A stretch of 46,917 bases of DNA from Solirubrobacterales bacterium (GTDB taxonomy: Bacteria > Actinomycetota > Thermoleophilia > Solirubrobacterales > 70-9): the NCBI GenBank assembly GCA_020438445.1, contig JAGQUO010000008.1, positions 1-46,917 on the forward strand, given 5' to 3'. The translations under genes and the position numbers were made by a program. Below, piece by piece: positions 1 to 46,917 of this stretch (the first letter of the stretch is position 1; every line of letters begins with the position of its first letter). A model generated the notes under the pieces. The model had not been told where the DNA came from. It made no database searches and saw only the letters and a list, made by a program, of their open reading frames with translations.

Positions 1-2631
1 GCTGTGGCGCGCCTGCTCGAGGTCTCCGATCCGCCCGAAGACACGACCGAACGTCAGGTGGGCGCGGCTGGCGATGGCGGATTGCCCCAGGGCTTCCGCG
101 AGCCGCTGGGCCTTCTCCGCCGCATAGATCGCGAGCATGTTGTCGCCGGTTTCGACGTAGAGCGAGGCCGCCTCCTCGTAGAGCTCGACCAGCTCGCGGC
201 AGGGTTCGGCGTCCTTGAGCAGATCGATCCCCCGCTGCAGGTGCGCAATCGACGATTCCCGGTCCGCCTTGTGCCAGAGCCCCGCGCCGATCTTCCTGTG
301 CAGGCCCCCCGCTCGGGCTGAATCGCCGGAGCCCTCCTGGAACTCGAGCGCCAGCGTCCAGTCCTCGATGGCTGCATCGACGTGACCGGCGCGGAACGCC
401 GTATCGCCGCGGCTTTCCTCGATCCGGGCCTTTGCATCGGGATCGAGCCCGCCGGCGAACCGCAGTGCGTTTCCGTAATGCACCAGGGCCTCGGCGTTCG
501 AATACAGGGACGCTGCGGCATCAGCGGCAGTCTCAGACGCCTGTGCAGAGGCCCGACGCATGCCCCGCAGCTCGTCAGCCGGGAAGTCCGCCTGCTCGGC
601 GAGCTCAGCGGCCTTCAGGCGATGTTCTGCCAGGAGGGCGGCAACGCCGCCTCGATTCTCACCGAGGCGACCTTCGATGATGTCCGCGAGCTCGGAGTGC
701 CGGCGGGCGCGGACGGCGCGGGGCAGCGTGCTGTACGCCACGTCGCGGACGAGCGCGTGCTTGAACGCGAACTCACGCTCGCCGACGACGCGGCTCGCCG
801 GCGTGGGAACGATCATGTCCTTGTTCACCAGCGCGTCCAGCGAGCCCTCGATCGCCCCGCCGACGAGGTCCCCGACGACCCTGTCCCAGAAGGTCTGCCC
901 GACCACCGAGGCCGCCTGGAGCAACCGCCGCTCGTCGGATCCGAGTGCGTCGAGGCGTGCTGCGAGCACCGCATGAACGCTGTCGGGCAGCCCCTCGACA
1001 TCGGCGCTTCGCTCCTCTCGGAGCCGATTGACCATCTCCTCGGCGAACAGCGGGTTGCCACCGGAACGATTGGCCACCTCGGCGGCCAGCTGATCGCCGC
1101 CCGGCTGACCGGCCAGGAGCGACTGGACGAGGCTCTCAGCCTCCTCGGTGGCCAGCGGATCCAGCGAGAGCGTCGTCGCATTCCGCCTGCCGCCGCCCCA
1201 TGTCGGCCTTCGCTCGAGCAGCTCGTCGCGAGCGAGACAGATGATCAGCACCGGCCCGCTCCCCCACGCAGCCAGGTGCTCGATCAGATCGAGCAAGCCC
1301 TCGTCGGCCCAGTGCACGTCCTCGAACGCCACGACGATCGGGCTTCTCGCGCTGAGGAGCTGCAGCACGAGGCGGGTGGCGGCGAAGATCTGATCGCGGA
1401 CCTGCTGGGGATCCTCGTCCGCGGCTTCGACCGGCTCGTCGATTCCGGCGACGCGCGCGATCAGCGCCGCCGCACGGGCGACGTCGATCGGCTCGCGCGT
1501 CCCCTCCGCGAGCTCCTCGATTCCGGTGGCCAGCCTGTCCGCCCCGACTGCCGAAGGCTCGGCGCGCGAGACACCGAACCGCTCGCGCAGAATCTCGCCC
1601 AGTGCCGCATAGGTCGTGGACGTCCCGTAGGCGGGAGAGTGACCCACCAGCGTCTCCACCTGCTCAGCGCGGCCTTCGAGGGAGATCGCCAGCTCCGCCA
1701 GCAATCGCGATTTTCCGACCCCGGCCTGCCCGAACACGGTGACGAGGTAGGGGCGAGACTCCCGGACGGAGCGCTCGAACAGCGATACGAGGAGAGCGAG
1801 CTCCTCATCCCGCCCGAGGAAGGGACCGCTGCCCCGCCTGGAGGCGTCCGTCGCATCTGGATCCGCCGGCCGCACCGCCTCCCAAGCCGGGATGGGATGC
1901 GACTTGCCCTTGAGCCTCAACGGCTCGAGGGCGCGGTATTCGATCGACGCCGCCGTCGACCGCCACGTCGACCCGCCGACGGTCACCGCCCCCACCGCGC
2001 CCGCCGCCTGAAGGCGGGCCGCCACGTTCACCGTGTCACCGATGACCGTGTACCGGTCGCCCACCGCGCCGGCCAGCACCTCCCCGGAGTTGATGCCGAC
2101 GCGAAGTGCCAGTTCGACGCCTTCGGACGCCGCGCGGTCCCCGATGTCGGCATTGATCTCGCTCATCGCCGCCTGCATCGCGAGCCCGGCTCGAACTGCC
2201 CGCTCGGGATCATCCTCATGAGCGATGGGCGCGCCGAATATCGCCATCACGTTGTCACCGATCAGCTTGTCGATATGTCCACCGCGATCGGTCACCTCAC
2301 GGCTCAGGCGATTCAGGGCCCGGTCGATCAGTGACTTGGTGACTTCGGGGTCGAGCCGCTCGGCGATGGCCGTGTACCCGGACAGGTCGGCGAACAGAAC
2401 CGTCGCCCGCCGCCGTTCCTCCGGCAGATCGTGCTCGATCTCGGGCGGTGTCTCACCTTCGCCGGATCGCCGGCCGAGGGCAGCCCCACACTCGCCGCAG
2501 AAGCTGGCACCGGGCAATCCGGGAGCGCCACAGTCGGGACAGGTGGCCGTCTGATCAGCACCGCAGCTGACGCAGAACCGCATCGCGGCCGGGTTCTCGG
2601 CTCCACATTCGATGCATTTCAGCGTCCTCAT
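1..2631 (-). CDS. Class III adenylate/guanylate cyclase fused to an AAA-type ATPase and helical repeats (3' end outside window)
   Basis: Open from the ATG at 2631 to the left edge (877 codons seen, no stop). A purine-rich GGAGGGGGG abuts the ATG. The N-terminus has two CxxC-CxxC zinc ribbons (CIEC/CVSC and CPDC/CGEC, about residues 6-45). A cyclase homology domain follows near residues 75-250, with FADLSG and IGDN supplying the two metal aspartates and VNVAARL the catalytic Asn/Arg; it therefore looks catalytically competent for making a cyclic nucleotide. An ATPase module has a P-loop (GQAGVGKS, about residue 300) and a Walker B-like EDVHWAD (about residue 435). The rest is helical, TPR-like. 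This is a cytosolic signalling ATPase of the cyclase-AAA-TPR type; ligand and target cannot be read from sequence. Confidence 0.9.
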   Translation of the reverse strand, partial: MRTLKCIECGAENPAAMRFCVSCGADQTATCPDCGAPGLPGASFCGECGAALGRRSGEGETPPEIEHDLPEERRRATVLFADLSGYTAIAERLDPEVTKSLIDRALNRLSREVTDRGGHIDKLIGDNVMAIFGAPIAHEDDPERAVRAGLAMQAAMSEINADIGDRAASEGVELALRVGINSGEVLAGAVGDRYTVIGDTVNVAARLQAAGAVGAVTVGGSTWRSTAASIEYRALEPLRLKGKSHPIPAWEAVRPADPDATDASRRGSGPFLGRDEELALLVSLFERSVRESRPYLVTVFGQAGVGKSRLLAELAISLEGRAEQVETLVGHSPAYGTSTTYAALGEILRERFGVSRAEPSAVGADRLATGIEELAEGTREPIDVARAAALIARVAGIDEPVEAADEDPQQVRDQIFAATRLVLQLLSARSPIVVAFEDVHWADEGLLDLIEHLAAWGSGPVLIICLARDELLERRPTWGGGRRNATTLSLDPLATEEAESLVQSLLAGQPGGDQLAAEVANRSGGNPLFAEEMVNRLREERSADVEGLPDSVHAVLAARLDALGSDERRLLQAASVVGQTFWDRVVGDLVGGAIEGSLDALVNKDMIVPTPASRVVGEREFAFKHALVRDVAYSTLPRAVRARRHSELADIIEGRLGENRGGVAALLAEHRLKAAELAEQADFPADELRGMRRASAQASETAADAAASLYSNAEALVHYGNALRFAGGLDPDAKARIEESRGDTAFRAGHVDAAIEDWTLALEFQEGSGDSARAGGLHRKIGAGLWHKADRESSIAHLQRGIDLLKDAEPCRELVELYEEAASLYVETGDNMLAIYAAEKAQRLAEALGQSAIASRAHLTFGRVFGRIGDLEQARHS

Positions 2632-2702
2632 CCCCCCTCCTCGGCGGACGGTACGCCATCAGGGTACGCCTGAGGGGTGGCCGGCGATCGCCGTGAGCGC
2701 AC

Positions 2703-3104
2703 CTACTCCGAAATCCCGGCGGCCTCGAGGGCTTCGGCGGGCTCGTGGTAGGCGCGGATGTAAGCGAGTTGGCCGTCCATCACCTGCACGACGTAGCCCC
2801 ACAGATGGTCGAATGGGATGCCACTGCCCGTTGCGCGGCCCTGGAACCGGACGAGAGCCACCTGACGCTCTCCGGCATCGAAGACGTCCTCGACCGTCAC
2901 GGTGGTCGTCTTGTCGTCCCCCATGGCCTCCAGGTAGTCCAGCCAACATCGGACAACCGCTTCCCGTCCCGCATAGGAGGCCGCTCCGGGAAACCGCGGA
3001 TCCTCGACGTACTCGATCTCCGGATGCCAGTAGGTCTTCGCGGTCTCCTGCAGGGCGCGATTGGCGAAAGCCTGCCGCACGATCTCGACGTCCCCCTCCG
3101 ACAT
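2703..3104 (-). CDS. SnoaL/NTF2-like family protein (minus block, copy 2)
   Basis: 133 residues, a single cone-shaped NTF2-like alpha+beta domain. It opens MSEGDVEIVRQAF and ends ALEAAGISE, matching four other genes in the window. Related folds act as small-molecule isomerases or cyclases, or simply bind ligand; no specific function can be assigned. Its start lies 3 nt after the upstream paralogue's TAG, and GGAG in that paralogue's last codons is the likely ribosome binding site. After its own stop the DNA reads GGTGCGC where the other copies have a new start, so a following copy may have been lost. Confidence 0.85.
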   Translation of the reverse strand: MSEGDVEIVRQAFANRALQETAKTYWHPEIEYVEDPRFPGAASYAGREAVVRCWLDYLEAMGDDKTTTVTVEDVFDAGERQVALVRFQGRATGSGIPFDHLWGYVVQVMDGQLAYIRAYHEPAEALEAAGISE

Positions 3105-3509: not shown

Positions 3510-3638
3510 CGCCTGCTCCGAGGGCTGATTGGGAAGGACCGACTCCCTGGCGAGAATAGATGCCCGCTCGTGCCCACGGTTCGGTCAATGCCGCTCGCCG
3601 CCTCCCTGACTCCCGCCGGGGAAGCCGGAGCCGCGAGG

Positions 3639-3712
3639 GGTGAGCGACGGGACTCGAACCCGCGACCGCCTGGACCACAACCAGGAGCTCTACCAACTGA
3701 GCTACGCCCACC
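3639..3712 (-). tRNA. tRNA-His (anticodon GTG)
   Basis: The minus strand folds as a cloverleaf. Acceptor strands GTGGGCG and CGCTCAC pair with one G-U. The anticodon stem CCTGG/CCAGG encloses a loop with GTG. The T arm is GCGGG-TTCGAGT-CCCGT. An extra G at 3712 can pair with the C discriminator at 3639, the G-1:C73 pair diagnostic of tRNA-His. CCA is not encoded. Confidence 0.96.
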
Positions 3713-3776: not shown

Positions 3777-4178
3777 CTAGGAGGCGTTGAGCGCGGCCGC
3801 CCCGCGGATCAATTCGGTGAACGCCTTCTCGTCGAGCACGTCACCCTCGCGCATGTCGATCGCCCGCCTCGCGTTTCCGTCGAGGCTCGCGTTGAAGACG
3901 CCCGCCGGATCGTCGAGCGAGGCCCCCTTCGCGAACGTGAGCTTGACCTTGTCCTTGTAGGTCTCACCCGTGCAGATGATGCCGTCGCACGACCAGACGG
4001 GCACGCCCCGCATGTCGTTGGAGGGCTTTCGCCACTTGACCTCTTCGACGATCTCGGGCCCGGCTTCGAGGATGAGCCGGCGGGCCCGGGCGAGCACCTC
4101 GCCGCGCCAGCCGCCGGTCTCCTCGATCGCCGCGTCGATCTCCTTCGATGCCGTCTCGAACCCCGGTTCTCCTGCCAT
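3777..4178 (-). CDS. DUF1801 domain protein
   Basis: 133 residues from ATG 4178, beginning MAGEPGFETASKEIDAAI, with the conserved EEVKWRKPS core near residue 50 and WSCDGIICTGETYKDKVKLTF after it. This is the DUF1801 (YdhG-like) fold; its biochemical role is not established. An in-frame ATG at 4217 would add 13 residues, but TACGAT six bases before 4178 gives a leaderless start there and the family normally begins here. It lies between two tRNA genes in a region of gene turnover. Confidence 0.85.
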   Translation of the reverse strand: MAGEPGFETASKEIDAAIEETGGWRGEVLARARRLILEAGPEIVEEVKWRKPSNDMRGVPVWSCDGIICTGETYKDKVKLTFAKGASLDDPAGVFNASLDGNARRAIDMREGDVLDEKAFTELIRGAAALNAS

Positions 4179-4184: not shown

Positions 4185-4190
4185 ATCGTA
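4185..4190 (-). promoter_or_regulatory. Candidate leaderless -10 box (TACGAT) of the DUF1801 gene
   Basis: TACGAT is followed by CGGCCC and then ATG at 4178, so transcription would begin at or next to the start codon. Confidence 0.5.
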
Positions 4191-4442: not shown

Positions 4443-4448
4443 AGGGTA
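4443..4448 (-). promoter_or_regulatory. Candidate leaderless -10 box (TACCCT) of the small membrane protein
   Basis: TACCCT-CCCGCG-GTG: a six-base spacer to the GTG at 4436. It lies 12 bp from the tRNA-Arg 3' end, so read-through from the tRNA is also possible. Confidence 0.4.
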
Positions 4449-4460
4449 ACCCCTGCGGAG

Positions 4461-4534
4461 CGCCCCGGGCAGGACTCGAACCTGCGACATCCGGCTTAGA
4501 AGGCCGGCGCTCTATCCAGCTGAGCTACCGGGGC
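4461..4534 (-). tRNA. tRNA-Arg (anticodon TCT)
   Basis: Cloverleaf on the minus strand: acceptor GCCCCGG/CCGGGGC, D arm with AGCTCAGCTGGATAGAGC, anticodon stem CCGGC/GCCGG with loop CTTCTAA (anticodon TCT), T arm GCAGG-TTCGAGT-CCTGC, discriminator G at 4461. CCA is not encoded. A decayed integrase lies just beyond its 5' end. Confidence 0.96.
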
Positions 4535-4615: not shown

Positions 4616-5200
4616 TCACGACTTCTGCCCATTCGTGCCCTCGAGCGCCCTATCGAACGCTTCAAGGTGGGCATCGGAAAGGCGTTCACGCCGCTTCACC
4701 GCCCTAGCGTAGACCGTGTGCGGGAAGGTCGGATCGGCCCATCCTCCCTCCTCCGCTATGCAGACCGGATCGTCGTGAAGGGCCGCCCGGAATGCTGGCG
4801 AAGGTGCGCCGGAGCGAGTGCGGGCTGACCCTCGAATTGACCTTCTCGATGCCCGCCCTCTCCAGCTTCTTATTCGCCCGTTTGATCGCTGTCTTGAGAC
4901 GAGGCCGCACGTTGTCGGACCTCTGGGCGTCTCGGGAGTCCACCGTTGTAGCCGCGGGTCGCGAGTACCGGGTCCGAGGCTGCCGTAGCGTCGCTGTGGG
5001 CCTTGTGAGACTTGAGGTCGTCAAGGAGTCCCCAGGGAGATCAACGACCCTCTGAGCCCCCGCATCGGTCTTGGACGAGCTGACGAAGATCGTCCCGTTC
5101 GCGAGATTCACGTCGCCCCAATCGAGCGCGAAGGCTCCCCCACCCGCAGCCCGGCACCGGCGAGGGTCGCCAGGATCGCCCCGTGTCCCACGGACGCCCT
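4616..5200 (-). pseudogene. Tyrosine recombinase (integrase) remnant with several frameshifts
   Basis: Pieces of a phage-type integrase catalytic domain are spread over different frames. In order they read ILATLAGAGLRVGE, then after a shift near 5127 ALDWGDVNLANGTIFVSSSK, then LLDDLKSHKAHSD, then NVRPRLKTAIKRANKKLE and PHSLRRTFAS (the HxxR box), and after a shift near 4797 EEGGWADPTFPHTVYARAVK with the catalytic Tyr, ending at a TGA at 4616. At least four frame changes make it non-functional as read. The N-terminal limit is unclear; upstream to about 5450 nothing convincing was found. The region is visibly less GC-rich than its surroundings. Confidence 0.8.
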
Positions 5201-5478
5201 TCGAGCAACGCCATTGGCTGTTCCGGTTCGGTTCCTTGACCCGTCGCCGGCCCCCTTTGAAGCTGCCGGGTTGCGGAGGATCAGGTCGTTTGTCGCAGAG
5301 GACTACGCGGGGGCGGCTGAGGTTGCTCAGGAGGCACCTATGGCCCTCCGGTTTCTTAGTTCTGAGGGTCCGGCTTCTTTCGCGACGAGGCTCTAGGGCG
5401 GTCGCAAACAACTCCAGCGTTGGGCACCGGGCGGCCCCCCTGGCATGCTGAAGCGTCTCGGGCGATACTGGACGGGCG
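5200..5478. other. Non-coding stretch between integrase remnant and SnoaL block
   Basis: I see no convincing gene on either strand. The composition is more mixed than the neighbouring coding DNA. It may hold decayed N-terminal integrase sequence on minus and, at its right end, the promoter of the plus-strand SnoaL block (GATACT about 9 bases before the ATG at 5479). Confidence 0.5.
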
Positions 5479-5907
5479 ATGTCCGAGGAGAACGTGAACG
5501 CCGCCATGACGCCCCCGGAACGGGAGCTCATCGCCAACCTCCAGCGCATGTTCGATGCCTACAATCGAGGCGATTTCGACCTTGTAGGCGAGTTCGTCGA
5601 TCCCGATGTAGAGCTGGTGACCATTGATCGTCTCACCGAACTGCGCGGAGTCGACGAGTTCCGGGCATGGCTTGAGCCAACGACCGTAGATACCGTCGCG
5701 GCCGAGTTGGAGCAGTTTGAGGTCGCGGGTAACAACGTGCTTGTGCGTCACTTCAATCGAGGCCGTGGCTTGAGGAGCGGTATCAGCCATGAGATTCACT
5801 TCTGGGCCGTCTGGACGTTCAACGAGGCAGGCCTTGTGACCCGGTGCGTAGGTTTCCGCGACGACCAGGAAGCCAACGCCCGCGAAGCCGCCGGGCTGTC
5901 GGAGTAG
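5479..5907 (+). CDS. SnoaL/NTF2-like family protein (plus block, copy 1)
   Basis: 142 residues. It starts MSEENVNAAMTPPERELI, has AYNRGDFDLVGEFVDPDVE near residue 30 (the usual first helix and strand of SnoaL-like domains), RGVDEFRAWL near residue 56, and ends EAAGLSE. The ligand is unknown. It is the first of three co-directional copies separated by only 3 nt each. GATACT and GGACGGGCG lie just before the ATG. Confidence 0.88.
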   Translation: MSEENVNAAMTPPERELIANLQRMFDAYNRGDFDLVGEFVDPDVELVTIDRLTELRGVDEFRAWLEPTTVDTVAAELEQFEVAGNNVLVRHFNRGRGLRSGISHEIHFWAVWTFNEAGLVTRCVGFRDDQEANAREAAGLSE

Positions 5908-12553: not shown

Positions 12554-12559
12554 AGGATA
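12554..12559 (-). promoter_or_regulatory. Candidate leaderless -10 box (TATCCT) of the DivIVA-like gene
   Basis: TATCCT-GAACCG-ATG. It lies downstream of the dehydrogenase terminator hairpin, so this two-gene unit probably has its own promoter. Confidence 0.5.
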
Positions 12560-13983: not shown

Positions 13984-13989
13984 AGCCTA
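13984..13989 (-). promoter_or_regulatory. Candidate leaderless -10 box (TAGGCT) at 13976 start
   Basis: TAGGCT-GTCGGGC-ATG. The box lies between the stop of the DUF1697 gene (13991) and this start. Confidence 0.5.
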
Positions 13990-15892: not shown

Positions 15893-15902
15893 AGCATAGA
15901 CT
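15893..15902. promoter_or_regulatory. Back-to-back overlapping -10 boxes of two divergent operons
   Basis: Only 26 bp separate the two start codons. TAGACT (15897-15902) lies 8 nt before the plus-strand ATG at 15911, and on minus TATGCT (15898 to 15893) lies 8 nt before the ATG at 15884. The boxes overlap at 15897-15898. If both are used, RNA polymerase cannot occupy both at once. Confidence 0.6.
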
Positions 15903-15910: not shown

Positions 15911-16633
15911 ATGAGCACCGACAACGCAGCCGCGGGCGACGGCGAGAAGCTCCCTCCGGTCCCGATCATCGGCGGCACCGGGGCGCTCGGATACGGGCTC
16001 GCGGTCCGCTGGGCCAAGGCCGGCATCGAAGTCGTGATCGGCTCGCGCGACCCCGGCCGCGCCGAAGAGGCCGCGGAGAAGGTCCGCGGCACCGTGCCCG
16101 GGGCATCGGTCTCGGGACTCGGTAACGGCGAAGCCGCCGGCCGGGGTCCGGTCGTCTTCCTGACGGTGCCGTTCCGGGCGCAGTCGGAGACCCTGAACAA
16201 CCTTCGCGAGGCGCTCGCGCCGGAGCAGATCCTGGTCGACTGCACCGTGCCGCTGGCCGCGGCCGTCAGCGGCAAGGCCACGCGCTCGCTCGGCGTCTGG
16301 CAGGGATCCGCGGCCGAGCAGGCGCAGGAGATGGTGCCCGAGGGGGTCGCGGTCGTCTCGGCACTTCACACCGTCGGCGCCCCGACGCTCGCCGACCCCG
16401 GCGCTTCGCTGGGTGAGGACGTACTGGTCTGCGGGGACAAGAAGCGTCACAAGGCCCCGGTGGCACGGCTGATCGAGCGGATCGAGGGCCTGCGCGCGGT
16501 CAACGCCGGGCCGCTGGAGATGGCTCGGATCGCCGAGCAGCTGACGCCGCTGCTGATCTCCGTCAACGTTCGCTACAAGGCGCACGCCGGGCTCAGGCTG
16601 GTCAACCTGCCCGAGACGGATCCCTGGGCGTGA
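15911..16633 (+). CDS. npdG: F420H2:NADPH oxidoreductase (NADPH-dependent F420 reductase)
   Basis: 240 residues. The Rossmann NADP motif PIIGGTGALGYGLAVRWAKAG (split here as GGTGALGYGLA and what follows) and IGSRDPGRAEEAA, whose Ser-Arg fits the NADP 2'-phosphate, are typical of Fno/NpdG. The mid-region VVFLTVPFRAQSETL and SALHTVGAPTL follow the family. The enzyme exchanges hydride between NADPH and F420, supplying reduced cofactor. It leads the F420 operon; its TGA overlaps the GTG of cofD. Confidence 0.9.
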   Translation: MSTDNAAAGDGEKLPPVPIIGGTGALGYGLAVRWAKAGIEVVIGSRDPGRAEEAAEKVRGTVPGASVSGLGNGEAAGRGPVVFLTVPFRAQSETLNNLREALAPEQILVDCTVPLAAAVSGKATRSLGVWQGSAAEQAQEMVPEGVAVVSALHTVGAPTLADPGASLGEDVLVCGDKKRHKAPVARLIERIEGLRAVNAGPLEMARIAEQLTPLLISVNVRYKAHAGLRLVNLPETDPWA

Positions 16634-17559
16634 GCGTAGTCGCACTCGCCGGCGGGACCGGCGGAGCGAAGCTCGCCGCCGGCCTGCAGGAGGTCGTGGG
16701 CGATGGGCTCACGGTCATCGCGAACACCGGCGACGACGTCGAGGCCCTCGGGGTCCACGTCTCCCCCGATCCCGACCTCTGCACCTACTGGCTCACGGGC
16801 CTGATCGACGAGGAGCGGGGGTGGGGGATCCGCGGCGACGCCTTCACCGTCTTCGAGCGACTGGTCGAGCTCGGTGCACCGGATTGGTTCGGGCTGTCGG
16901 ACCGGGACCTGGCGACGTGCCTCGAGCGCCGGCGCCGCCTCGACGCAGGCGAGCGCCTGACGCCGATCGCATCCGGCCTCGCCTTCGCACTCGGTGCGGA
17001 GGCGACCGTCCTGCCGATGTGCGACGAGCCGGTCCGGACGAGGGTGCGGACCGACGCCGGGTGGCGCGAGTTCCAGCAGTACCTGATCCAGGATGGTGCC
17101 GGGCCGGCGATCGAGGAGGTCGACTTCGCGGGGATCTCGGATGCACGGCCGTCGCCGGAGGCGGAGGCCGCGATCGAGGGTGCGGAGGCGATCGTCATCG
17201 GCCCCTCCAACCCGGTGATCTCGATCGGGCCGATCCTTGCGGTTCCGGGGATGAGCGCGCTGCTCGCCGCCGCCGAAGCGCCCGTCGTCGCCGTCAGCCC
17301 CTTCGTCGCCGGCGAGGTGATCAAGGGTCCCACGGACAAGTTCATGCGAGCGATCGGCCGCGAGCCGTCGGCGGCCGGCGTCGCCTCCGCGTACCGCGGG
17401 GTGATCGACGGGCTCGTCGTCGACGCCGCCGACCCCGATCCGGATCCGGACGAGGACGGCGTCGCGACGACGCGTCTCGACACGCTGATGAGCGATGCGC
17501 CCGCGCGGCGGCGCGTGGCCGAGGCGACGCTCGGCTTCGCGACGTCGCTGCGAGACTGA
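16630..17559 (+). CDS. cofD: 2-phospho-L-lactate transferase (CofD/FbiA)
   Basis: 309 residues from GTG 16630. ALAGGTGGAKLAAGLQ at the N-terminus is the CofD nucleotide loop, followed by VIANTGDDVEALGVHVSPDPD (in two parts: NTGDD and HVSPD), WGIRGDAFTVFERL, and IVIGPSNPVISIGPIL. CofD couples the activated 3-carbon acid (lactyl- or enolpyruvyl-diphospho-guanosine) to Fo, giving (dehydro-)F420-0. GTGA overlap with the upstream gene and 10-bp spacing to cofC indicate one transcript. Confidence 0.96.
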   Translation: MSVVALAGGTGGAKLAAGLQEVVGDGLTVIANTGDDVEALGVHVSPDPDLCTYWLTGLIDEERGWGIRGDAFTVFERLVELGAPDWFGLSDRDLATCLERRRRLDAGERLTPIASGLAFALGAEATVLPMCDEPVRTRVRTDAGWREFQQYLIQDGAGPAIEEVDFAGISDARPSPEAEAAIEGAEAIVIGPSNPVISIGPILAVPGMSALLAAAEAPVVAVSPFVAGEVIKGPTDKFMRAIGREPSAAGVASAYRGVIDGLVVDAADPDPDPDEDGVATTRLDTLMSDAPARRRVAEATLGFATSLRD

Positions 17560-17569
17560 GGCAGAACAG

Positions 17570-18226
17570 ATGCGCGCCACCGCAATCGTCCCCGTCAAGC
17601 ACTTCGACCGCGCCAAGAGCCGGCTGTCGGAGAGTGCGGCCGCGGCTCACCGGCCGGAGCTGGCGAAGGCCATGCTCTCCGACGTCCTGCTCGGGTTGCG
17701 GGAATCACGCCTGGTCAACCGGATCGTCGTCGTCACCGGCGAGCCCGAGGCTCGCGAGGTCGCCGAGCGGGGTGGCGCCGAGCTCATCGACGATCCCGAC
17801 GACGTCGGCCATTCCGAGGCGGCGATGATCGGCATCGCCGACGCAATGGCGCGCGGCACCGAGTGCGTCGCCCTCGTGCCCGGAGACACGCCGCTGCTCG
17901 ACGGGGTCGAGCTCGACCGCGAGCTCGATGCCCAGGCTCCGGGAGTGGCCGTCATCCCCGATCATCACGGCACCGGCACGAACGGCCTGATCCTCTCCCC
18001 TCCCGACGTGATCGAGCCGTCCTTCGGCCCGGACAGCCGCGCCCGCCACCTGGAGCTCGCCCGCGCCGCGGGTGCGCGATGCCGGATTGCGACGGTCCGC
18101 TCGATGGCGCTCGACCTCGACACCGGCGACGACCTCCGAGAGCTCCTCGCATCGCTCGATTTCGACCCCGCGCGCGCCCCCGCCACCGCGGCGGCGCTCG
18201 AGGAGCTCGGCATCGACGCGACGTGA
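17570..18226 (+). CDS. cofC: Phospholactate/phosphoenolpyruvate guanylyltransferase (CofC/FbiD)
   Basis: 218 residues from ATG 17570, with AGAACAG before it. AIVPVKHFDRAKSRLSE is the CofC nucleotide-binding start, VVVTGEPEAREVAERGGAE the second strand, and VALVPGDTPLLDG the metal-binding loop; HHGTGTNGLILSPP binds the acid moiety. In actinobacteria the homologue FbiD uses phosphoenolpyruvate rather than 2-phospholactate; that is likely but not readable here. It overlaps cofE by GTGA. Confidence 0.94.
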   Translation: MRATAIVPVKHFDRAKSRLSESAAAAHRPELAKAMLSDVLLGLRESRLVNRIVVVTGEPEAREVAERGGAELIDDPDDVGHSEAAMIGIADAMARGTECVALVPGDTPLLDGVELDRELDAQAPGVAVIPDHHGTGTNGLILSPPDVIEPSFGPDSRARHLELARAAGARCRIATVRSMALDLDTGDDLRELLASLDFDPARAPATAAALEELGIDAT

Positions 18227-18969
18227 GCGGGCCGATCACGGTCCTGCCGATCTCCGGAATCCCGGAGATCGAGGCGGGGGCGGACCTCGGGAGGGCGATC
18301 GCCTCCGCTGCGGAGCCGACGGACGGGGACATCTTCGTCGTCGCCCAGAAGGTCGTGTCGAAAGCCGAGGGACGCGGTCGCCGTCTCGCGGACGTCGAGC
18401 CCTCCCCGCGCGCGATCGAGCTCGGCCACGACCTCGACAAGGACCCGCGCCTGGTCGAGCTGATCCTCGCCGAATCGGTACGGATCGTGCGCGATGAACG
18501 GGTCCTCATCGTCGAGACCGCCGGCGGTCTGATCTGCGCCAACGCCGGCATTGACTCCTCGAACGTGGGGGCCGCCGGAGAGGTCCTGCTGCTCCCCGAG
18601 GACCCCGACGCCTCCGCGCAGCGTCTGCGGGCCGAGATCGGGGCGGCGGCGGGTGGCCGGGTCGGCGTCGTCATCAGCGACAGCTTCGGCCGCCCCTGGC
18701 GAGTCGGTCAGACCGACGTCGCGATCGGCTGCGCGGGCGTCCGTCCGGTGGACGACTGGCGCGGCCGTCCCGATCGCGACGGACGGGAGCTCGCCGCCAC
18801 CGAGATCGCCGTAGCGGATCAGCTCGCCGGGGCCGCGGACCTCAGCCGCGACAAGGCGGCCGGGGTGCCGGCCGTCCTGATCCGCGGCCGGCCCGACCTG
18901 GTGACGGCCGAGGACGGACCGGGCGCCCGCTCCCTGCAGCGCCCGCGCGATCAGGACCTGTTCCGCTGA
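18223..18969 (+). CDS. cofE: F420-0:gamma-glutamyl ligase (CofE), without the FbiB reductase domain
   Basis: 248 residues from GTG 18223. VAQKVVSKAEGR, LILAESVRIVR, ICANAGIDSSNV and VVISDSFGRPWRVGQTDVAIG (SDSFGRPWR core) are the CofE hallmarks. The enzyme adds the gamma-linked glutamates of the F420 tail using GTP. Mycobacterial FbiB is about twice as long because a C-terminal FMN domain reduces dehydro-F420-0; that domain is absent here and no nitroreductase gene follows. It converges with fbiC. Confidence 0.95.
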   Translation: MSGPITVLPISGIPEIEAGADLGRAIASAAEPTDGDIFVVAQKVVSKAEGRGRRLADVEPSPRAIELGHDLDKDPRLVELILAESVRIVRDERVLIVETAGGLICANAGIDSSNVGAAGEVLLLPEDPDASAQRLRAEIGAAAGGRVGVVISDSFGRPWRVGQTDVAIGCAGVRPVDDWRGRPDRDGRELAATEIAVADQLAGAADLSRDKAAGVPAVLIRGRPDLVTAEDGPGARSLQRPRDQDLFR

Positions 18970-19000
18970 GGAACCGATCCCGGCGCCGGCGGCCGGTCGT

Positions 19001-21226
19001 TCAGTAGGTCTCGAGCACCTCGTAGAGAGTCGATCGCTGCGCCGGCGTCCGCCCCGCGGCCCGGGCGGCGCCGATCAGATCCTCCGGCTCGAGCCGGGAA
19101 CCGTGCTGAGAGCCGGCCATGCGGGAGATGCTCTCCTCCATCAGCGTGCCGCCGAGGTCGTTCACCCCCCAGCGGAGTGCCTCGGTCGCGGCGCCGAGGC
19201 CCATCTTCACCCAGCTCGCCTGCAGGTTCGTGATCGTGCGCCCGAGCGCGAGCCGGAAGACGGCCGTGTGCTTGAGGTTCTCGGCGTCGGAGATCTCCTC
19301 GATGCCGTGGGTCCGCCCGAGCATCGTGTGGTAGGGGATGAAGCTGAGCGGCACGAACTCGGTGATCCCCCCGGTCCGCTCCTGGACGGCGCGGACCACC
19401 CGCATGTGCTCGGCCAACTCTTCCGGCGTCTCGATGTGACCGAACATGACGGTCGACGTGGAGCGGAGCCCGGCGCGGTGCGACGCCTCGATGATCTCCA
19501 CCCAGCGGGCGGCGGGGAGCTTGTTCGGCGAGATCCGGTTCCGGACACCGTCTTCGAGCACCTCCGCGGCCGTGCCCGGAGTCGAGCCGAGTCCGCAGTC
19601 GCGCAGGTAGGCGAAGACGTAGTCGGGGTCCCTGCCCGAGCGCTCGCACATGAAGTGGACCTCCATCGGCGAGTAGGCATGGAGGTGGATCTCCGGTGCG
19701 ACCTCCTTGGCCCGGCGCAGCCACGCGCCGTAGTGCTCGAGCGTGTAGTCCGGATGGATGCCGCCCTGCATGCAGATCTCGGTGGCCCCGAACTCGACCG
19801 CCTCGCGGATCCGCTCGGCGAACTCACCGGGCTCGATCTCGTAGGCGTCGGGGCTGCGGCTCGTCTGCCCGAACCCGCAGAACGCGCATCCGACGGTGCA
19901 CACGTTCGTGAAGTTGATGTTGCGGTTGACCACGAACGTCGCAACGTCACCGGAGAGCTCGGCGCGGAGCTCGTCCGCCGCCGCACGGATCTCCGCGACC
20001 GCCTCGGGCCGCGTCTCGCGGAACAGCGCGACCAGCTCCTCGCTCGTCAGCTCGTGACCGTCGCGGCCGCGCTCGACGGCTCGGCGGACCGGATCGCCGG
20101 AGCCGAGCGCCGGACCGCCGCCGTTCCCGTTCGCGGACGCGGCGGCGAAGCCCGGCCGCCGAGGCAGGAACGTCGGGTACCGGGCCGCGAGGACGTCGAG
20201 GACCCCGGGGTCGACCCACTCGTCGTTCATGTACTGCGGGTAGACGCAGAGGCGCTCGGTCAGCGCGTAACCGAGCGGGCGCAGGCGCTTACGGACCTGG
20301 AGCGGGCTCGGGAACGGGTGCTCCGGCGAGATGTGATCGCCGTTGGCCGAGAGCCCGCCGAGGTCGGTGGCGCCGGCGTCGACGAGGTCGATCCACCAGT
20401 CGGAGAGGTTCGGCGGGACCTGGATCCCGACCTCCGGCATCAAGCGCCTGCACTCGGCGACCAGGCGCTTCATGTCCTCCAGGGAGACCGGCTCCGCCCA
20501 CGCCGGCCAATCGATCGTGGATTCGCCGGCGTCGTGCCCGGGGTCGGTCGCCCACCGCTTCTCGCTCGCGTCCGCCGCGATGTCGGCCACCTCGGCGCCG
20601 TAGTAGCGAGGATGGGCGACGAAGTTCTGGAGGATCACCTCCTGGATGTGGCCGTGGCGCCGCTGGATCTCCGCGATCGCCTCGAGCGACGCGACGCGCT
20701 CCTCCTCGGTCTCGCCGATGCCGACGAGGATGCCGCTGGTGAACGGGATCTTCAGCTCGCCGGCCGCCTCGATGGCCTCGATCCTCACCCGCGGATTCTT
20801 GGTCGGCGAGCCGGCGTGGACGGTCTCCATCAGCCGCTCAGCCGCCGACTCCAGCATCAGTCCCTGCGAAGCGGTGACGGTGCGGAGGCGGGCATAGTCC
20901 TCCCGGCTCGCGACGCCGACGTTCGTGTGGGGGAGCAGCCCCCGTTCGAGCGCCTGCTCGCAGGCCCAGCGCACGTAGGAGGTGAAGTCCTCGTGCCCCC
21001 ACCCGCGGAGCCGTTCCGCCACCAGCGGATTCACCTCGGGCCGCTCCCCGGTGAGCACGAGCAGCTCCTTGACGTTCCGGCGCGAGGCCGCATCGAGCCG
21101 TTCGAGGACCTCCTCGGGCGGATGCACGTGTGCCTGGTGGGTCGCGAACGCGCAGTACTTGCAGTAGCAGCGGCACGTCCGCGAGAGCGACAGCGTCAGG
21201 TTCCGGGAGAAGGTGACGCGACGCAT
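19001..21226 (-). CDS. fbiC: FO synthase FbiC (CofG-CofH fusion, dual radical SAM)
   Basis: 741 residues from ATG 21226. The CofG half has the radical SAM Cys18-x3-Cys22-x2-Cys25 motif, then VLTGERPEV and GILVGIGETEEER. The CofH half has NINFTNVCTVGCAFCGF with cysteines at about 443, 447 and 450, then CMQGGIHPDYTLEHY and TSTVMFGHIET. Together they build the deazaflavin FO from tyrosine and the ribityl-pyrimidine. A GTG at 21235 would add three residues, but TAGCGT seven bases before 21226 favours the ATG. It converges with cofE, completing the F420 set within 5.4 kb. Confidence 0.97.
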   Translation of the reverse strand: MRRVTFSRNLTLSLSRTCRCYCKYCAFATHQAHVHPPEEVLERLDAASRRNVKELLVLTGERPEVNPLVAERLRGWGHEDFTSYVRWACEQALERGLLPHTNVGVASREDYARLRTVTASQGLMLESAAERLMETVHAGSPTKNPRVRIEAIEAAGELKIPFTSGILVGIGETEEERVASLEAIAEIQRRHGHIQEVILQNFVAHPRYYGAEVADIAADASEKRWATDPGHDAGESTIDWPAWAEPVSLEDMKRLVAECRRLMPEVGIQVPPNLSDWWIDLVDAGATDLGGLSANGDHISPEHPFPSPLQVRKRLRPLGYALTERLCVYPQYMNDEWVDPGVLDVLAARYPTFLPRRPGFAAASANGNGGGPALGSGDPVRRAVERGRDGHELTSEELVALFRETRPEAVAEIRAAADELRAELSGDVATFVVNRNINFTNVCTVGCAFCGFGQTSRSPDAYEIEPGEFAERIREAVEFGATEICMQGGIHPDYTLEHYGAWLRRAKEVAPEIHLHAYSPMEVHFMCERSGRDPDYVFAYLRDCGLGSTPGTAAEVLEDGVRNRISPNKLPAARWVEIIEASHRAGLRSTSTVMFGHIETPEELAEHMRVVRAVQERTGGITEFVPLSFIPYHTMLGRTHGIEEISDAENLKHTAVFRLALGRTITNLQASWVKMGLGAATEALRWGVNDLGGTLMEESISRMAGSQHGSRLEPEDLIGAARAAGRTPAQRSTLYEVLETY

Positions 21227-21233: not shown

Positions 21234-21239
21234 ACGCTA
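21234..21239 (-). promoter_or_regulatory. Candidate leaderless -10 box (TAGCGT) of fbiC
   Basis: TAGCGT-GCCGAGC-ATG. A start at the upstream GTG (21235) would place the start codon inside the box, arguing for ATG 21226. Confidence 0.5.
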
Positions 21240-22471: not shown

Positions 22472-22834
22472 TCAGATCGAGCGGCGGCGGCGGTACTCGG
22501 CGCGGACGCTCTCGGGTCGCCCCCACATCTGGTGGATCTCGGCCCGGCCCTCGTTGAGGCCACGGACGACGAGCTCGCCCTCGATGCCCTGGCGGTCGAG
22601 CATCTCCAGCACCCAGGCGACGGTCTCCGGCGCCGCCGCATGACCGAATCCGTGGGCGACGTTGATCCGCCAGTGCCAATCGGCCTCCGAGTAGGGCTGG
22701 GCGTTGATCTGCGTCATCGGGACCGACGCGTCGACGTAGCGGGTCTCGTCGGCGAGCCGGAGATCGAGTTGCATGTCGGTCCAGTCGCGTGGAAGCGACC
22801 CGACGATCTCCTGGAAAGAGTCCGAAAGCGCCAC
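22472..22834 (-). CDS. Conserved-looking protein of unknown function
   Basis: 120 residues from GTG 22834. I do not recognise a family. It is a mixed-charge soluble protein with QEIVGSLPRDWTDMQLDLRL at the N-terminus, a WHWRINVAHGFGHAAAPETVA centre, and ends MWGRPESVRAEYRRRRSI. TAGGCT seven bases before the GTG gives a leaderless start. It is followed at 3 nt by the receiver-like gene, making a two-gene unit between the aquaporin and the Nramp operon. Confidence 0.7.
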   Translation of the reverse strand: MALSDSFQEIVGSLPRDWTDMQLDLRLADETRYVDASVPMTQINAQPYSEADWHWRINVAHGFGHAAAPETVAWVLEMLDRQGIEGELVVRGLNEGRAEIHQMWGRPESVRAEYRRRRSI

Positions 22835-22841: not shown

Positions 22842-22847
22842 AGCCTA
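22842..22847 (-). promoter_or_regulatory. Candidate leaderless -10 box (TAGGCT) at 22834 start
   Basis: TAGGCT-TGCGGCC-GTG, in the 22-bp gap after the Nramp stop. Confidence 0.5.
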
Positions 22848-27301: not shown

Positions 27302-27307
27302 TACAAT
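27302..27307 (+). promoter_or_regulatory. Candidate leaderless -10 box (TACAAT) of ygfZ
   Basis: TACAAT-CGGCCCC-GTG, pointing away from the metal operon. Confidence 0.55.
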
Positions 27308-28291: not shown

Positions 28292-28297
28292 TAGATT
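28292..28297 (+). promoter_or_regulatory. Candidate -10 box (TAGATT) of the lipoprotein gene
   Basis: TAGATT with a 9-nt spacer to ATG 28307; transcription would start at or 1-2 nt before the start codon. Confidence 0.5.
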
Positions 28298-35349: not shown

Positions 35350-35355
35350 TAGAGT
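35350..35355 (+). promoter_or_regulatory. Candidate leaderless -10 box (TAGAGT) of the two-component operon
   Basis: TAGAGT-CGGGCCG-ATG: seven-base spacer to the response-regulator start at 35363. Confidence 0.55.
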
Positions 35356-36031: not shown

Positions 36032-37461
36032 GCCTCCGCACCCGGCTGTCGCTGTCGATCGCCGCGCTCGTCCTGGTCTCGGTCACGGCATTGGGGATCG
36101 CGGTCTACAACCTGGTCGGCAGCCGGCTCGATGACAGGACCGACTCCGAGCTCGCCGTCCAGGCGGACGCCCTCGCCCGGGCGATCGCAAGCGCGCCCCC
36201 GGGCCGGGAGGCCGACGCCGCACGGGCATACATCGGCGGCCAGGCCCTGGCCGGATCGCGGCTGCTGATCGCCCAGGTCCCCGGGGCCGCGACCCCGATC
36301 AGCAACCAGTCGCCGCTCCTCGTCGACCACAGCGAGGACGGCCCCGGCGACGGGCACGATGGCGAGGAGGCCGAGGAGGAGGAGGAGCACGCGCAGATCC
36401 GGGACCTGCTCGGCGCCGATCCCGGCTACAGCACGATCGAGCTCGCCGAGAGCGGCGACCTCAGGCTCCTGACCAGGGAGGTGCCGACCGCCGCGGGAAC
36501 CGCGGTCGTCCAGGCCGGCGAGCCGGCTGCCGCCACCGAACAGGCGCAGCACCAGGTCGCCGGGACCTTCCTGCTGATCGGCTCGCTGACCGTGGTGGCG
36601 GCCGGACTGCTCGGCCTGCTGATCGCCGCGCGGACCGCGCGTCCGCTGGAGCGGATGGCAGGGCGCGCGACCGAGGTCGACGCCGGGCGGCTCGATCTCC
36701 GCATGGACGAGCACACCCGCGTCGGGGAGATCGCGGCGCTGGCCGAGAGCTTCGATCGGATGCTCGACCGCCTCGAGGCGTCCTTCCGCTCCCAGCGGGC
36801 GTTCGTCGCCGACGCCTCCCACGAGCTGAGGACCCCGCTCACGGCCATCCTCGGACAGGCCCAGGTGCTGGCGGCGAACCCGGAGCCCGATCCGGACGAG
36901 GTCGCCCGGGTCACCGCGCTGATCGAGCGCGAGGCGGAGCGGATGGGTGCCCTGATCGATGGCCTGCTCCAGCTCGAGCGGATCGAAGCCGAGGAGGCGG
37001 CCGAGCGGCCCGGGCCCTTCGACCTAGCCGCCGTCGCCGCCGAGGTGGTGGCCGCGCTTCCCGTGCCGCAGGCGGACCGGATCGAGGTCGATTCGAGCGC
37101 ATCGGTGACGGCCGTCGGCAGGCGCGAGGACACGATCAGGATCACCCGCAACCTGGTAGCCAACGCGCTCTCCCACGGCCGTGAGCGCGTGTTGGTCACG
37201 GTCGGCACCGGCACCGGCGAGGTCACCCTGACCGTCGATGACGACGGCCCCGGCATCCCGCCGGAGGACCGCGAGCGGGTCTTCGAGCGGTTCGCCCGGC
37301 TCGAGGCGTCGCGCAGCCGCGAATACGGCGGCTCCGGCCTCGGGCTGGCGATCTCGCGGGAGCTCGCACGTGCGCAGGGCGCGCGGATCGAGGTCGGCGA
37401 CTCGCCACTGGGCGGAGCGCGGCTGACCCTGTGCATGCCGAGCGGAGCCGCCGGTCAATAA
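36028..37461 (+). CDS. Sensor histidine kinase with an acidic/His extracytoplasmic segment
   Basis: 477 residues. Two membrane helices (about 13-33 and 178-200) bound an exported sensor of about 145 residues. HAMP follows (ARTARPLERMAGRATEVDAG), then the H-box DASHELRTPL with the phospho-acceptor His, the N-box NLVANALSHG, the G1 DDDGPGIP, and GGSGLGLAIS. The exported segment contains a run of aspartate, glutamate and three histidines near residues 101-122 (HSEDGPGDGHDGEE followed by AEEEEEH). Such a patch could bind divalent metals or cationic peptides. It is transcribed with the response regulator at 35363. Confidence 0.95.
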   Translation: MSLRTRLSLSIAALVLVSVTALGIAVYNLVGSRLDDRTDSELAVQADALARAIASAPPGREADAARAYIGGQALAGSRLLIAQVPGAATPISNQSPLLVDHSEDGPGDGHDGEEAEEEEEHAQIRDLLGADPGYSTIELAESGDLRLLTREVPTAAGTAVVQAGEPAAATEQAQHQVAGTFLLIGSLTVVAAGLLGLLIAARTARPLERMAGRATEVDAGRLDLRMDEHTRVGEIAALAESFDRMLDRLEASFRSQRAFVADASHELRTPLTAILGQAQVLAANPEPDPDEVARVTALIEREAERMGALIDGLLQLERIEAEEAAERPGPFDLAAVAAEVVAALPVPQADRIEVDSSASVTAVGRREDTIRITRNLVANALSHGRERVLVTVGTGTGEVTLTVDDDGPGIPPEDRERVFERFARLEASRSREYGGSGLGLAISRELARAQGARIEVGDSPLGGARLTLCMPSGAAGQ

Positions 37462-37464
37462 GAT
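37459..37464 (+). promoter_or_regulatory. Candidate -10 box (TAAGAT) overlapping the kinase stop codon
   Basis: TAAGAT with a 9-nt spacer to ATG 37474. The TAA stop of the kinase gene forms its first three bases. Confidence 0.4.
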
Positions 37465-37813: not shown

Positions 37814-37819
37814 TAGATT
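37814..37819 (+). promoter_or_regulatory. Candidate leaderless -10 box (TAGATT) of the hydroxylase gene
   Basis: TAGATT-CGGGCC-GTG, six-base spacer to 37826. Confidence 0.55.
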
Positions 37820-39619: not shown

Positions 39620-39721
39620 GAGTTCAGCTTATCAACACCACCAGAGAATTCTATTGCGCTTATGACGATGCGGCGGCAGGCTGAGTTCGGAACCCGATCC
39701 CGAGACCCGAAGGAGGCAGGC
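39620..39721. promoter_or_regulatory. Divergent intergenic region with LysR promoter and a possible LysR site
   Basis: It holds the minus-strand box TAAGCT (39631-39626) for lysR. GCTTAT occurs at 39627-39632 and again at 39658-39663, 31 bp apart (about three helical turns), around an AT-rich centre with GAATTC. GAAGGAGGC before ATG 39722 is a strong ribosome binding site. Confidence 0.5.
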
Positions 39722-40951: not shown

Positions 40952-40957
40952 AGCGTA
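40952..40957 (-). promoter_or_regulatory. Candidate leaderless -10 box (TACGCT) of the secreted protein
   Basis: TACGCT-CATCACG-ATG, seven-base spacer; no ribosome binding site otherwise. Confidence 0.5.
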
Positions 40958-41888: not shown

Positions 41889-41894
41889 ACCGTA
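41889..41894 (-). promoter_or_regulatory. Candidate leaderless -10 box (TACGGT) of the MBL hydrolase
   Basis: TACGGT-GCGCGGCC-GTG, eight-base spacer to 41880. Confidence 0.5.
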
Positions 41895-41934: not shown

Positions 41935-41940
41935 TAGAAT
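41935..41940 (+). promoter_or_regulatory. Candidate leaderless -10 box (TAGAAT) of the mutase gene
   Basis: TAGAAT-GGCGGCC-ATG, seven-base spacer to 41948. Confidence 0.6.
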
Positions 41941-41947: not shown

Positions 41948-43948
41948 ATGAGCGAGCACCGGCTGGACGAGCGCGACAGGCCCTGGGTGATGCGGACCTA
42001 CGCGGGGCATTCCGACGCCCGGCGGTCGAACGAGCTCTATCGCCGCAACCTGGCCAAGGGTCAGACGGGGTTGTCGATCGCCTTCGACCTGCCGACCCAG
42101 ACGGGATACGACCCGGACGCGGTGCTGGCCCGCGGGGAGGTCGGGAAGGTCGGCGTCTCGGTCGCCCACCGCGGCGACATGGAGACGCTGCTCGACCAGA
42201 TCCCGCTCGCGGAGATGAACACGTCGATGACGATCAACGCCACCGCCGCGTGGCTCCTCGGCCTCTACGTCGCCGTGGCCGACGAGCAGGGTGTCCCGCG
42301 CGGGGAGCTGAAGGGGACGACCCAGAACGACATCATCAAGGAGTACCTCTCGCGCGGGACCTATGCGTTCCCGCCGGAGCCGTCGATGCGGCTGATCGCC
42401 GACATGGTCGCGTTCACGGTCAACGAGATCCCGAGCTGGAACCCGATCAACATCTGCAGCTACCACCTGCAGGAGGCCGGCGCGACCCCCGTACAGGAGA
42501 TCGCCTTCGCGCTCAGTAACGCCATCGCCGTCCTCGACTCGGTCCGCGGGCGCGGGCAGGTCTCCGCGGAGGACTTCCCGCGCGTCTTCGGCCGGATCAG
42601 CTTCTTCGTCAACGCCGGCGTCCGTTTCATCGAGGAGCACGCGAAGCTGCGGGCGATGGGCATTCTCTGGGAGGAGCTCGGCCGCGAGCGCTACGGGGTC
42701 ACCGACCCGAGGTTCCTGCGGATGCGTTACGGAGTGCAGGTCAACTCACTCGGGCTCACGGAGGCGCAGCCCGAGAACAACGTCCCGCGGATCGTCCTCG
42801 AAGCCCTGGCCGTCACCCTCGGCCGCGACGCCCGCGCCCGGGCGATCCAGCTCCCCGCCTGGAACGAGGCCCTCGGCCTCCCCCGCCCCTGGGATCAGCA
42901 GTGGAGCCTGCGCATCCAGCAGATCCTCGCCGAGGAGACCGACCTCCTCGACTACCCCGACATCTTCGAGGGATCGAAGGTCATGGACGGGCTCGTCTCC
43001 GAGCTGATCGACGGCGCCCGGAGCGAGATGGCGGTCGTCGCCGAGCACGGCGGCGCGACGACCAGTGAGGCCGTCTCCTACATGAAGGCCCGTCTCGTCG
43101 AATCGCATCGTGACCGCCTCGCGCGGATCGAGTCCGGCGAGCTCAAGGTGATCGGGCAGAACTGCTTCACCGAGACCGAGGACTCGCCGCTGACGGTCGG
43201 CGACGACGGCGGCATCCTGACGCCGGACCCCGCCGTCGAGCGTGAGCGGATCGAGGCGCTCGAGGAATGGAAGGCAGCCCGCGACGATGAAGCGGTCGAG
43301 CGGGCGCTCGAGGCGCTCGCGGCGGCGGCCCGCGACGAGTCCGCCAACCTGATGCCGGCGACGATCGAGGCGGCCCGGGCGGGCGTCACCACCGGCGAGT
43401 GGGCCGAGGCGCTGCGCGAGGTCTTCGGGCCCTATCGCGGCCCGACCGGGCTCGACGGCTCGGCATCCGGCGGGAACGCCGAGCTGCTGGCCGAGGTCCG
43501 CGACCGGGTCGCAGCCGTCGGAGAGGCGATCGGCCACCGGATCCGGATCCTCGTCGCCAAGCCCGGCCTCGACGGCCACTCCAACGGCGCCGAGCAGATC
43601 GCCGTTCGCGCCCGCGACGTCGGCATGGAGGTCATCTACCAGGGCATCCGCCTGACGCCGGAGGAGATCGCCGCCTCCGCCGTGCAGGAGGACGTCGACG
43701 TGATCGGGCTTTCTATCCTCTCCGGCTCGCACCGCGAGCTCGTGCCCCGCGTCGTCGAGCTGCTCCGCGAAGCGGGAGTCGACGCGCCCGTCGTCGTCGG
43801 CGGCATCATCCCGCCGGCGGACGAGGCCAAGCTGATCGAGGCGGGAATCGCCAGGGTCTACACGCCGAAGGACTTCGACCTGAACCGGATCATGGTCGAC
43901 ATCGCCGAGCTGATCGAGTTGCGCTCGGAAGCATCCCAGCCGGCCTAG
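41948..43948 (+). CDS. ecm: Ethylmalonyl-CoA-mutase-like B12-dependent acyl-CoA mutase
   Basis: 666 residues joining the catalytic barrel and the B12 domain, as in Ecm/MeaA. RPWVMRTYAGHSDARRSNELY, given in parts as RPWVMRTYAGHS and SNELY, then LAKGQTGLSIAFDLPTQTGYD, and NICSYHLQEAGATPVQE are typical of the Ecm/MeaA branch. The B12 motif DGHSNGAE (DxHxxG) is near residue 541, followed by GLSILSGSH. It should rearrange ethylmalonyl-CoA to methylsuccinyl-CoA, downstream of Ccr. Methylmalonyl-CoA mutase is the alternative, but the single-chain length and wording of the substrate barrel favour Ecm. Confidence 0.88.
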   Translation: MSEHRLDERDRPWVMRTYAGHSDARRSNELYRRNLAKGQTGLSIAFDLPTQTGYDPDAVLARGEVGKVGVSVAHRGDMETLLDQIPLAEMNTSMTINATAAWLLGLYVAVADEQGVPRGELKGTTQNDIIKEYLSRGTYAFPPEPSMRLIADMVAFTVNEIPSWNPINICSYHLQEAGATPVQEIAFALSNAIAVLDSVRGRGQVSAEDFPRVFGRISFFVNAGVRFIEEHAKLRAMGILWEELGRERYGVTDPRFLRMRYGVQVNSLGLTEAQPENNVPRIVLEALAVTLGRDARARAIQLPAWNEALGLPRPWDQQWSLRIQQILAEETDLLDYPDIFEGSKVMDGLVSELIDGARSEMAVVAEHGGATTSEAVSYMKARLVESHRDRLARIESGELKVIGQNCFTETEDSPLTVGDDGGILTPDPAVERERIEALEEWKAARDDEAVERALEALAAAARDESANLMPATIEAARAGVTTGEWAEALREVFGPYRGPTGLDGSASGGNAELLAEVRDRVAAVGEAIGHRIRILVAKPGLDGHSNGAEQIAVRARDVGMEVIYQGIRLTPEEIAASAVQEDVDVIGLSILSGSHRELVPRVVELLREAGVDAPVVVGGIIPPADEAKLIEAGIARVYTPKDFDLNRIMVDIAELIELRSEASQPA

Positions 43949-46780: not shown

Positions 46781-46793
46781 TCCTGCTTTCTCC

Positions 46794-46917
46794 TCATCGA
46801 TCGGTGGGGACTCCGTACAGCTTCGCAAGCCGCCGGTGACGGTGCCTGAAGATGGCTCGGACGACGGTGGCGGCGAGGCGGTCGCTTCCGGGGATCGCCC
46901 GCAGCGGCCGCCGGAGC
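46794..46917 (-). CDS. 3' end of an unidentified gene cut by the window edge
   Basis: Forty residues of an open frame end at TGA 46794: LRRPLRAIPGSDRLAATVV, then RAIFRHRHRRLAKLYG. It is basic and helical; I cannot name it. Support is the 13-bp spacing to the M42 start, which carries that gene's ribosome binding site, and the lack of stops in the frame to the edge. Confidence 0.5.
   Translation of the reverse strand, partial: LRRPLRAIPGSDRLAATVVRAIFRHRHRRLAKLYGVPTDR

What the first reader, a model, noticed from the sequence alone, without database searches (positions are those of the whole stretch)
1..46917. Leaderless-promoter signature at 17 gene starts
A TANNNT hexamer lies 6-9 nt before the start codon, with no ribosome binding site, at 4178, 4436, 12547, 13976, 15884, 15911, 21226, 22834, 27315, 28307, 35363, 37474, 37826, 39619, 40944, 41880 and 41948. 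If A and T are each about one base in six, a chance hit at four allowed offsets is around 2 percent per gene, so 17 cases are far above chance. Leaderless mRNAs are known in actinobacteria; here they seem to be the default for first genes of operons, while inner genes use overlaps. The pattern also fixes disputed starts (4436, 21226, 40944, 41880).
Basis: partly seen in the sequence, partly recalled or inferred. Interest (0 to 1): 0.72.

Follow-up and report, generated by a model that had tools for sequence, protein, structure and literature searches.

The report
Leaderless genes in an uncultured actinobacterium
Many genes in this uncultured actinobacterium carry their promoter just before the start codon, so their messages should begin at the first codon with no ribosome-binding leader; this is real and conserved across its order, but it is a mode already known in actinobacteria.

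Summary
All 17 TANNNT hexamers lie 6-9 nt before the stated starts. A gene caller that never sees upstream sequence picks 15 of the 17 starts. In 1.66 Mb of the same genome, TANNNT peaks at exactly 6-9 nt (84/95/83/47 cases, against 0-5 at spacings 0-5). It occurs at 25-30% of first genes (shuffle 1-2%) but at chance level in overlapping inner genes, which use Shine-Dalgarno sites more. Orthologs of the 17 genes in the order (Thermoleophilia, Solirubrobacterales) keep the hexamer in 205 of 264 cases, against 19 of 227 for inner genes. The reading as -10 boxes giving leaderless mRNAs is well supported, but no transcript start was mapped. "Default for first genes" is too strong: 14 of 30 in the window, 24.5-29% genome-wide. 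Leaderless TANNNT genes in Actinobacteria have been known since 2011-2013, so this is a new member of a known kind. One side result is less ordinary: pair 15884/15911 shares a single symmetric -10 (ANNNTANNNT), an arrangement enriched across the order. Elsewhere the base that would make a -10 symmetric is avoided (3/170 against 67/588), which may reflect selection on promoter direction.

The parts
4185..4190 (-). -10 hexamer TACGAT, 6 nt before ATG at 4178 (DUF1801 protein)
4443..4448 (-). -10 hexamer TACCCT, 6 nt before GTG at 4436 (69-aa ORF just behind tRNA-Arg; weak case)
12554..12559 (-). -10 hexamer TATCCT, 6 nt before ATG at 12547 (DivIVA-like)
   Evidence: 2/2 orthologs
13984..13989 (-). 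-10 hexamer TAGGCT, 7 nt before ATG at 13976 (SnoaL-like, below Pfam cut-off)
   Evidence: 2/3 orthologs
15893..15902 (.). shared symmetric element AGCATAGACT: TATGCT on - strand (8 nt before ATG 15884) and TAGACT on + strand (8 nt before ATG 15911), overlapping at TA
   Evidence: kept in both same-genus relatives
21234..21239 (-). -10 hexamer TAGCGT, 7 nt before ATG at 21226 (FO synthase, radical SAM CofG/CofH type)
   Evidence: 62/79 orthologs
22842..22847 (-). -10 hexamer TAGGCT, 7 nt before GTG at 22834 (120-aa protein, no Pfam match)
   Evidence: 55/62 orthologs
27302..27307 (+). -10 hexamer TACAAT, 7 nt before GTG at 27315 (GCV_T folate-binding family)
   Evidence: 20/23 orthologs
28292..28297 (+). 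-10 hexamer TAGATT, 9 nt before ATG at 28307 (coding-only caller prefers 28337)
35350..35355 (+). -10 hexamer TAGAGT, 7 nt before ATG at 35363 (OmpR-type response regulator)
   Evidence: no orthologs in the set
37459..37464 (+). hexamer TAAGAT, 9 nt before ATG at 37474 (ABM family); its TA is the stop codon of the upstream gene: weakest case
   Evidence: 1/2 orthologs
37814..37819 (+). -10 hexamer TAGATT, 6 nt before GTG at 37826 (fatty acid hydroxylase family)
   Evidence: 0/1 orthologs
39626..39631 (-). -10 hexamer TAAGCT, 6 nt before ATG at 39619 (LysR regulator)
   Evidence: 2/2
40952..40957 (-). -10 hexamer TACGCT, 7 nt before ATG at 40944
   Evidence: 1/1
41889..41894 (-). -10 hexamer TACGGT, 8 nt before GTG at 41880 (metallo-beta-lactamase fold)
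   Evidence: 2/3
41935..41940 (+). -10 hexamer TAGAAT, 7 nt before ATG at 41948 (methylmalonyl-CoA mutase)
   Evidence: 10/10 orthologs

Best explanation
The hexamers are -10 boxes of the housekeeping sigma factor. RNA polymerase starts about 7 nt downstream of the last T, on the A or G of the start codon. The mRNA therefore has no leader, and the ribosome starts on the 5'-terminal ATG or GTG without a Shine-Dalgarno site. Inner operon genes, and roughly 70-75% of first genes, use other signals, in many cases Shine-Dalgarno sites. Shown here: motif, spacing, class contrast and conservation. Inferred: transcript starts and ribosome entry.
For: The spacing histogram rises from 0-5 cases to 84-95 at exactly 6 nt, and falls after 9. 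Starts were called without upstream data. First genes have the motif in 24.5%, inner genes in 3%; core SD words occur in 6% of motif-bearing first genes, 34% of other first genes and 52% of inner genes without the motif. The per-start rate at internal in-frame ATG/GTG codons is 0.08%. Orthologs keep the motif in 205/264 against 19/227 for inner genes, although the surrounding upstream DNA diverges. The 16S 3' end TGGATCACCTCCTTTC is found by exact match in four of ten relatives examined, so SD initiation is also available. The same signal with mapped starts defines leaderless genes in Mycobacterium tuberculosis (PMC3898074).
Against: No RNA data exist for this uncultured organism. No -35 motif is visible in the aligned promoters, so a -10-only or degenerate -35 promoter must be assumed. 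Two of the 17 starts differ from the coding-only call, 37474 borrows its TA from a stop codon, and the single ortholog of 37826 lacks the motif.
Confidence: 0.93

Rival explanations
1. The hexamers are promoters, but the true start codon is a later one, giving a short leader.
For: Start codons are often uncertain in GC-rich genomes; two of the 17 starts differ from the coding-only call.
Against: The spacing peak is exact to the nucleotide at 6-9 from starts chosen by coding potential alone, and orthologs keep the spacing with the same N-terminus.
Confidence: 0.04
2. The motif is a non-Shine-Dalgarno translation signal in a leader, as in Bacteroidetes, and not a promoter.
For: It replaces the SD word in motif-bearing genes.
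Against: It is at chance level in overlapping inner genes, which need a translation signal but no promoter, and its pattern is that of a -10 box.
Confidence: 0.02
3. Chance matches selected by a reader free to choose starts.
Confidence: 0.01

Closest known systems
TA-like (TANNNT) leaderless genes of Actinobacteria and Deinococcus-Thermus, Zheng et al. 2011 (PMC3160421)
   Same: Same hexamer at the same place, same high-GC degenerate form, and a similar share: mean 19.2% of genes (range 2.3-29.8) in Actinobacteria; here 293 of 1502 called genes at the called start.
   Different: The paper's main text does not name Conexibacter or Rubrobacter; here it is an uncultured Solirubrobacterales genome, with conservation shown gene by gene across the order.
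Leaderless transcriptome of Mycobacterium tuberculosis, Cortes et al. 2013 (PMC3898074)
   Same: TANNNT -10 boxes, leaderless and Shine-Dalgarno genes side by side, ATG and GTG both used, close divergent promoters common, with a leaderless divergent pair shown.
   Different: There the transcript starts are mapped; here they are inferred.
Bidirectional promoters from -10 symmetry, Warman et al. 2021 (cited in PMC12825309; original not held)
   Same: One -10 element read on both strands, as at 15893-15902.
   Different: Here both transcripts would be leaderless, the overlap is one TA step in ANNNTANNNT, and two-way transcription is untested.

Membership tests
Actinobacterial leaderless genes (TANNNT type) | TANNNT about 10-12 bp before the start codon (6-9 nt spacer) | tested here: met
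Actinobacterial leaderless genes (TANNNT type) | No Shine-Dalgarno site at these starts | tested here: met
   6% of motif-bearing first genes have a core SD word against 34% of other first genes; the short spacer contributes to this
Actinobacterial leaderless genes (TANNNT type) | Signal at transcription-unit heads, absent in overlapping inner genes | tested here: met
   30% of divergent genes, 0.7% of overlapping genes
Actinobacterial leaderless genes (TANNNT type) | Start codon ATG or GTG at the 5' end | tested here: met
   211 of 217 motif-bearing first genes start with ATG or GTG; the caller itself penalises TTG
Actinobacterial leaderless genes (TANNNT type) | Mapped transcript start within 5 nt of the start codon | not testable with these tools
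   needs dRNA-seq or Cappable-seq
Bidirectional promoters (-10 symmetry) | Overlapping -10 elements on both strands | tested here: met
   15893-15902 AGCATAGACT, kept in same-genus relatives
Bidirectional promoters (-10 symmetry) | Divergent transcription from the shared element | not testable with these tools
   needs TSS mapping or a two-way reporter

The most novel reading that the evidence does not exclude
In this order, selection acts on the symmetry of leaderless -10 boxes. Back-to-back genes 22-29 bp apart share one symmetric ANNNTANNNT box that serves two leaderless genes and can load only one polymerase at a time. One-way promoters avoid the single A that would make them symmetric and start antisense transcription.
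Probability: 0.35. Interest if true: 0.5.

Novelty: new member of a known kind. Interest (0 to 1): 0.3.

Why it matters
It places a deep, largely uncultured actinobacterial lineage firmly among those with mixed leaderless and leadered translation, and gives a practical rule for gene starts there: 38 further first genes gain a better start in this genome sample alone. The symmetry result, if confirmed, would show that promoter direction is under selection at a single base, and would give a compact natural model for two-way promoters, since both transcript starts are fixed by the two start codons.

Tried and rejected
16S was not found in the own assembly, so relatives were used. No -35 box was found. 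One-mismatch forms of TANNNT add little: only GANNNT is in clear excess, probably from Shine-Dalgarno sites. A plain peak of divergent gene distances at 22-28 bp was not found in the own genome; raw counts of CAT/CAC-element-ATG/GTG in the own sample do not exceed controls (3 against 0-12 for A/T-only controls), and the excess appears only over many genomes. The lack of A right after the last T is mostly the general rarity of TpA. The phylum-wide pattern count is hard to read because genomes with many chance hits raise both the pattern and its control.

Full report
Check of the observation. All 17 hexamers are present at the stated starts with 6-9 nt spacers. It finds 50 genes in the window and chooses 15 of the 17 starts exactly. 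In the window, 15 of 50 called starts carry the motif against a shuffled mean of 0.66, maximum 4 in 2000.

Genome-wide test. Over 1578 genes the count of TANNNT by spacer length is 2, 2, 5, 1, 2, 0 at 0-5 nt, then 84, 95, 83, 47 at 6-9, then 21, 10, 8 and background. The motif is at 30% of divergent genes, 29% of same-strand genes with 31-100 nt gaps, 9% with gaps over 100 nt, 16% at 0-30 nt and 0.7% of overlapping genes. Core Shine-Dalgarno words go the other way: 6% of first genes with the motif, 34% of first genes without, 52% of inner genes without. With alternative starts within 75 nt, 38 more first genes gain the motif where 0.7 is expected from internal start codons. The total is then 255 of 885 first genes, 29%. 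In the window 14 of 30 first genes have it (my count). The mode is common but not the default.

Lineage and conservation. The closest fbiC relatives in named genomes are Solirubrobacterales and other Thermoleophilia. Orthologs of the F420 oxidoreductase (15911) and fbiC (21226) across that order, including Conexibacter, Solirubrobacter, Patulibacter and Svornostia, mostly keep a TANNNT 6-11 nt before the start, while the rest of the upstream DNA is not alike. For all 17 genes, 205 of 264 orthologs keep it at 6-9 nt; for inner genes 19 of 227. These orthologs are related to each other and a few genes dominate the count, so the number is not a set of independent events. The composition-matched control TNNNAT is raised for the 17 genes because TANNAT fits both patterns. 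Four of ten 16S sequences of relatives show the exact end TGGATCACCTCCTTTCTAGGG; in the other six the 12-base probe TGGATCACCTCC was not found by exact match, and this was not pursued.

Mechanism. The hexamer, its degenerate middle, the sharp lower limit of 6 nt and the restriction to unit heads fit a sigma-A -10 box with the transcript starting on the first base of the start codon. Translation would then begin on the 5'-terminal ATG or GTG. Transcription start and ribosome entry are inferred from the same signal in Mycobacterium tuberculosis, where starts were mapped (PMC3898074), and from the genome survey of Zheng et al. (PMC3160421), which reports a mean of 19.2% leaderless genes in Actinobacteria. 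Here 293 of 1502 genes (19.5%) have the motif at the called start. This is an ordinary actinobacterial value.

Weak cases. At 37474 the TA is the stop codon of the upstream gene (37459-37461). 4436 is a 69-aa ORF starting 24 nt behind a tRNA-Arg gene, with one ortholog. 28307 and 41948 differ from the coding-only starts; 41948 is backed by 10 of 10 orthologs, 28307 by one of one. 37826 has one ortholog, without the motif. 35363 has none in the set.

A shared, symmetric -10. Genes 15884 and 15911 are divergent with 26 bp between them. Their hexamers overlap by one TA, in AGCATAGACT (15893-15902). The same element is in both same-genus relatives, and in a similar form in other family members. 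In divergent pairs with the motif on both sides, an overlap of exactly 2 bp is the commonest distance in relatives: 14 of 78, with no other distance above 3. In the own genome it is 2 of 32. Part of this is expected, because given one TANNNT only one extra base (A) is needed. Across 101 genomes of the order, CAT-N6-9-ANNNTANNNT-N6-9-ATG occurs about 317 times, against about 47 for the same pattern read backwards (leaving out one genome with 90 control hits) and about 97 for an inverted-end control; I added these totals by hand from the tables. That is an excess of two to three such elements per genome. In the own genome sample alone there is no excess over controls.

Avoidance of symmetry elsewhere. 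In the own genome the base four positions before the TA is A in 3 of 170 leaderless promoters behind a same-strand gene, 8 of 155 in divergent ones more than 30 bp apart, 4 of 15 in tight divergent ones, and 67 of 588 for other intergenic TANNNT (same-strand against intergenic, Fisher p = 3e-5). Relatives show the same order: 10 of 176, 27 of 227 and, for gaps of 20-29 bp, 24 of 29 (not independent, and pooled over all relatives the base is not depleted). This position was noticed in the first motif table and then tested, so the p-value is not from a preset hypothesis. One reading is that a symmetric -10 is avoided because it would start antisense transcription. The rival is a base preference of the sigma factor at about -16. 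The data do not separate them fully, though the frequent A in conserved tight pairs shows that A is tolerated. Two-way -10 elements are known from Escherichia coli (cited in PMC12825309); I found no paper in the held library on shared leaderless pairs or on this avoidance, but the original 2021 paper is not held.

Verdict. It is a new member of a known kind, of modest interest. The symmetry result is a lead worth a direct test.

Noticed in passing
15893-15902: One symmetric element AGCATAGACT serves as putative -10 box for two divergent genes (thioesterase FlK-like 15884 and F420-dependent oxidoreductase 15911), kept in the genus.
   Followed up: yes
4460-4534 and 4704-5549: tRNA-Arg(TCT) on the - strand with an ORF weakly matching phage integrase (Pfam E 4e-5, below cut-off) on the same strand nearby, in a stretch of lower GC (62-66%) with few gene calls: possible remnant of an element integrated at the tRNA.
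   Followed up: partly
3637-3711: tRNA-His(GTG) on the - strand.
   Followed up: no
15911-21226: Coenzyme F420 cluster: F420-dependent oxidoreductase, CofD, F420 ligase and FO synthase (CofG/CofH type), with leaderless-type starts at both outer ends.
   Followed up: partly
22472-22834: 120-aa protein without Pfam match whose leaderless-type start is kept in 55 of 62 orthologs across the order.
   Followed up: partly
G139 (genome search handle): One same-family genome has 90 hits of the reversed control pattern against 4 of the pattern itself, which points to a repeat family there.
   Followed up: no
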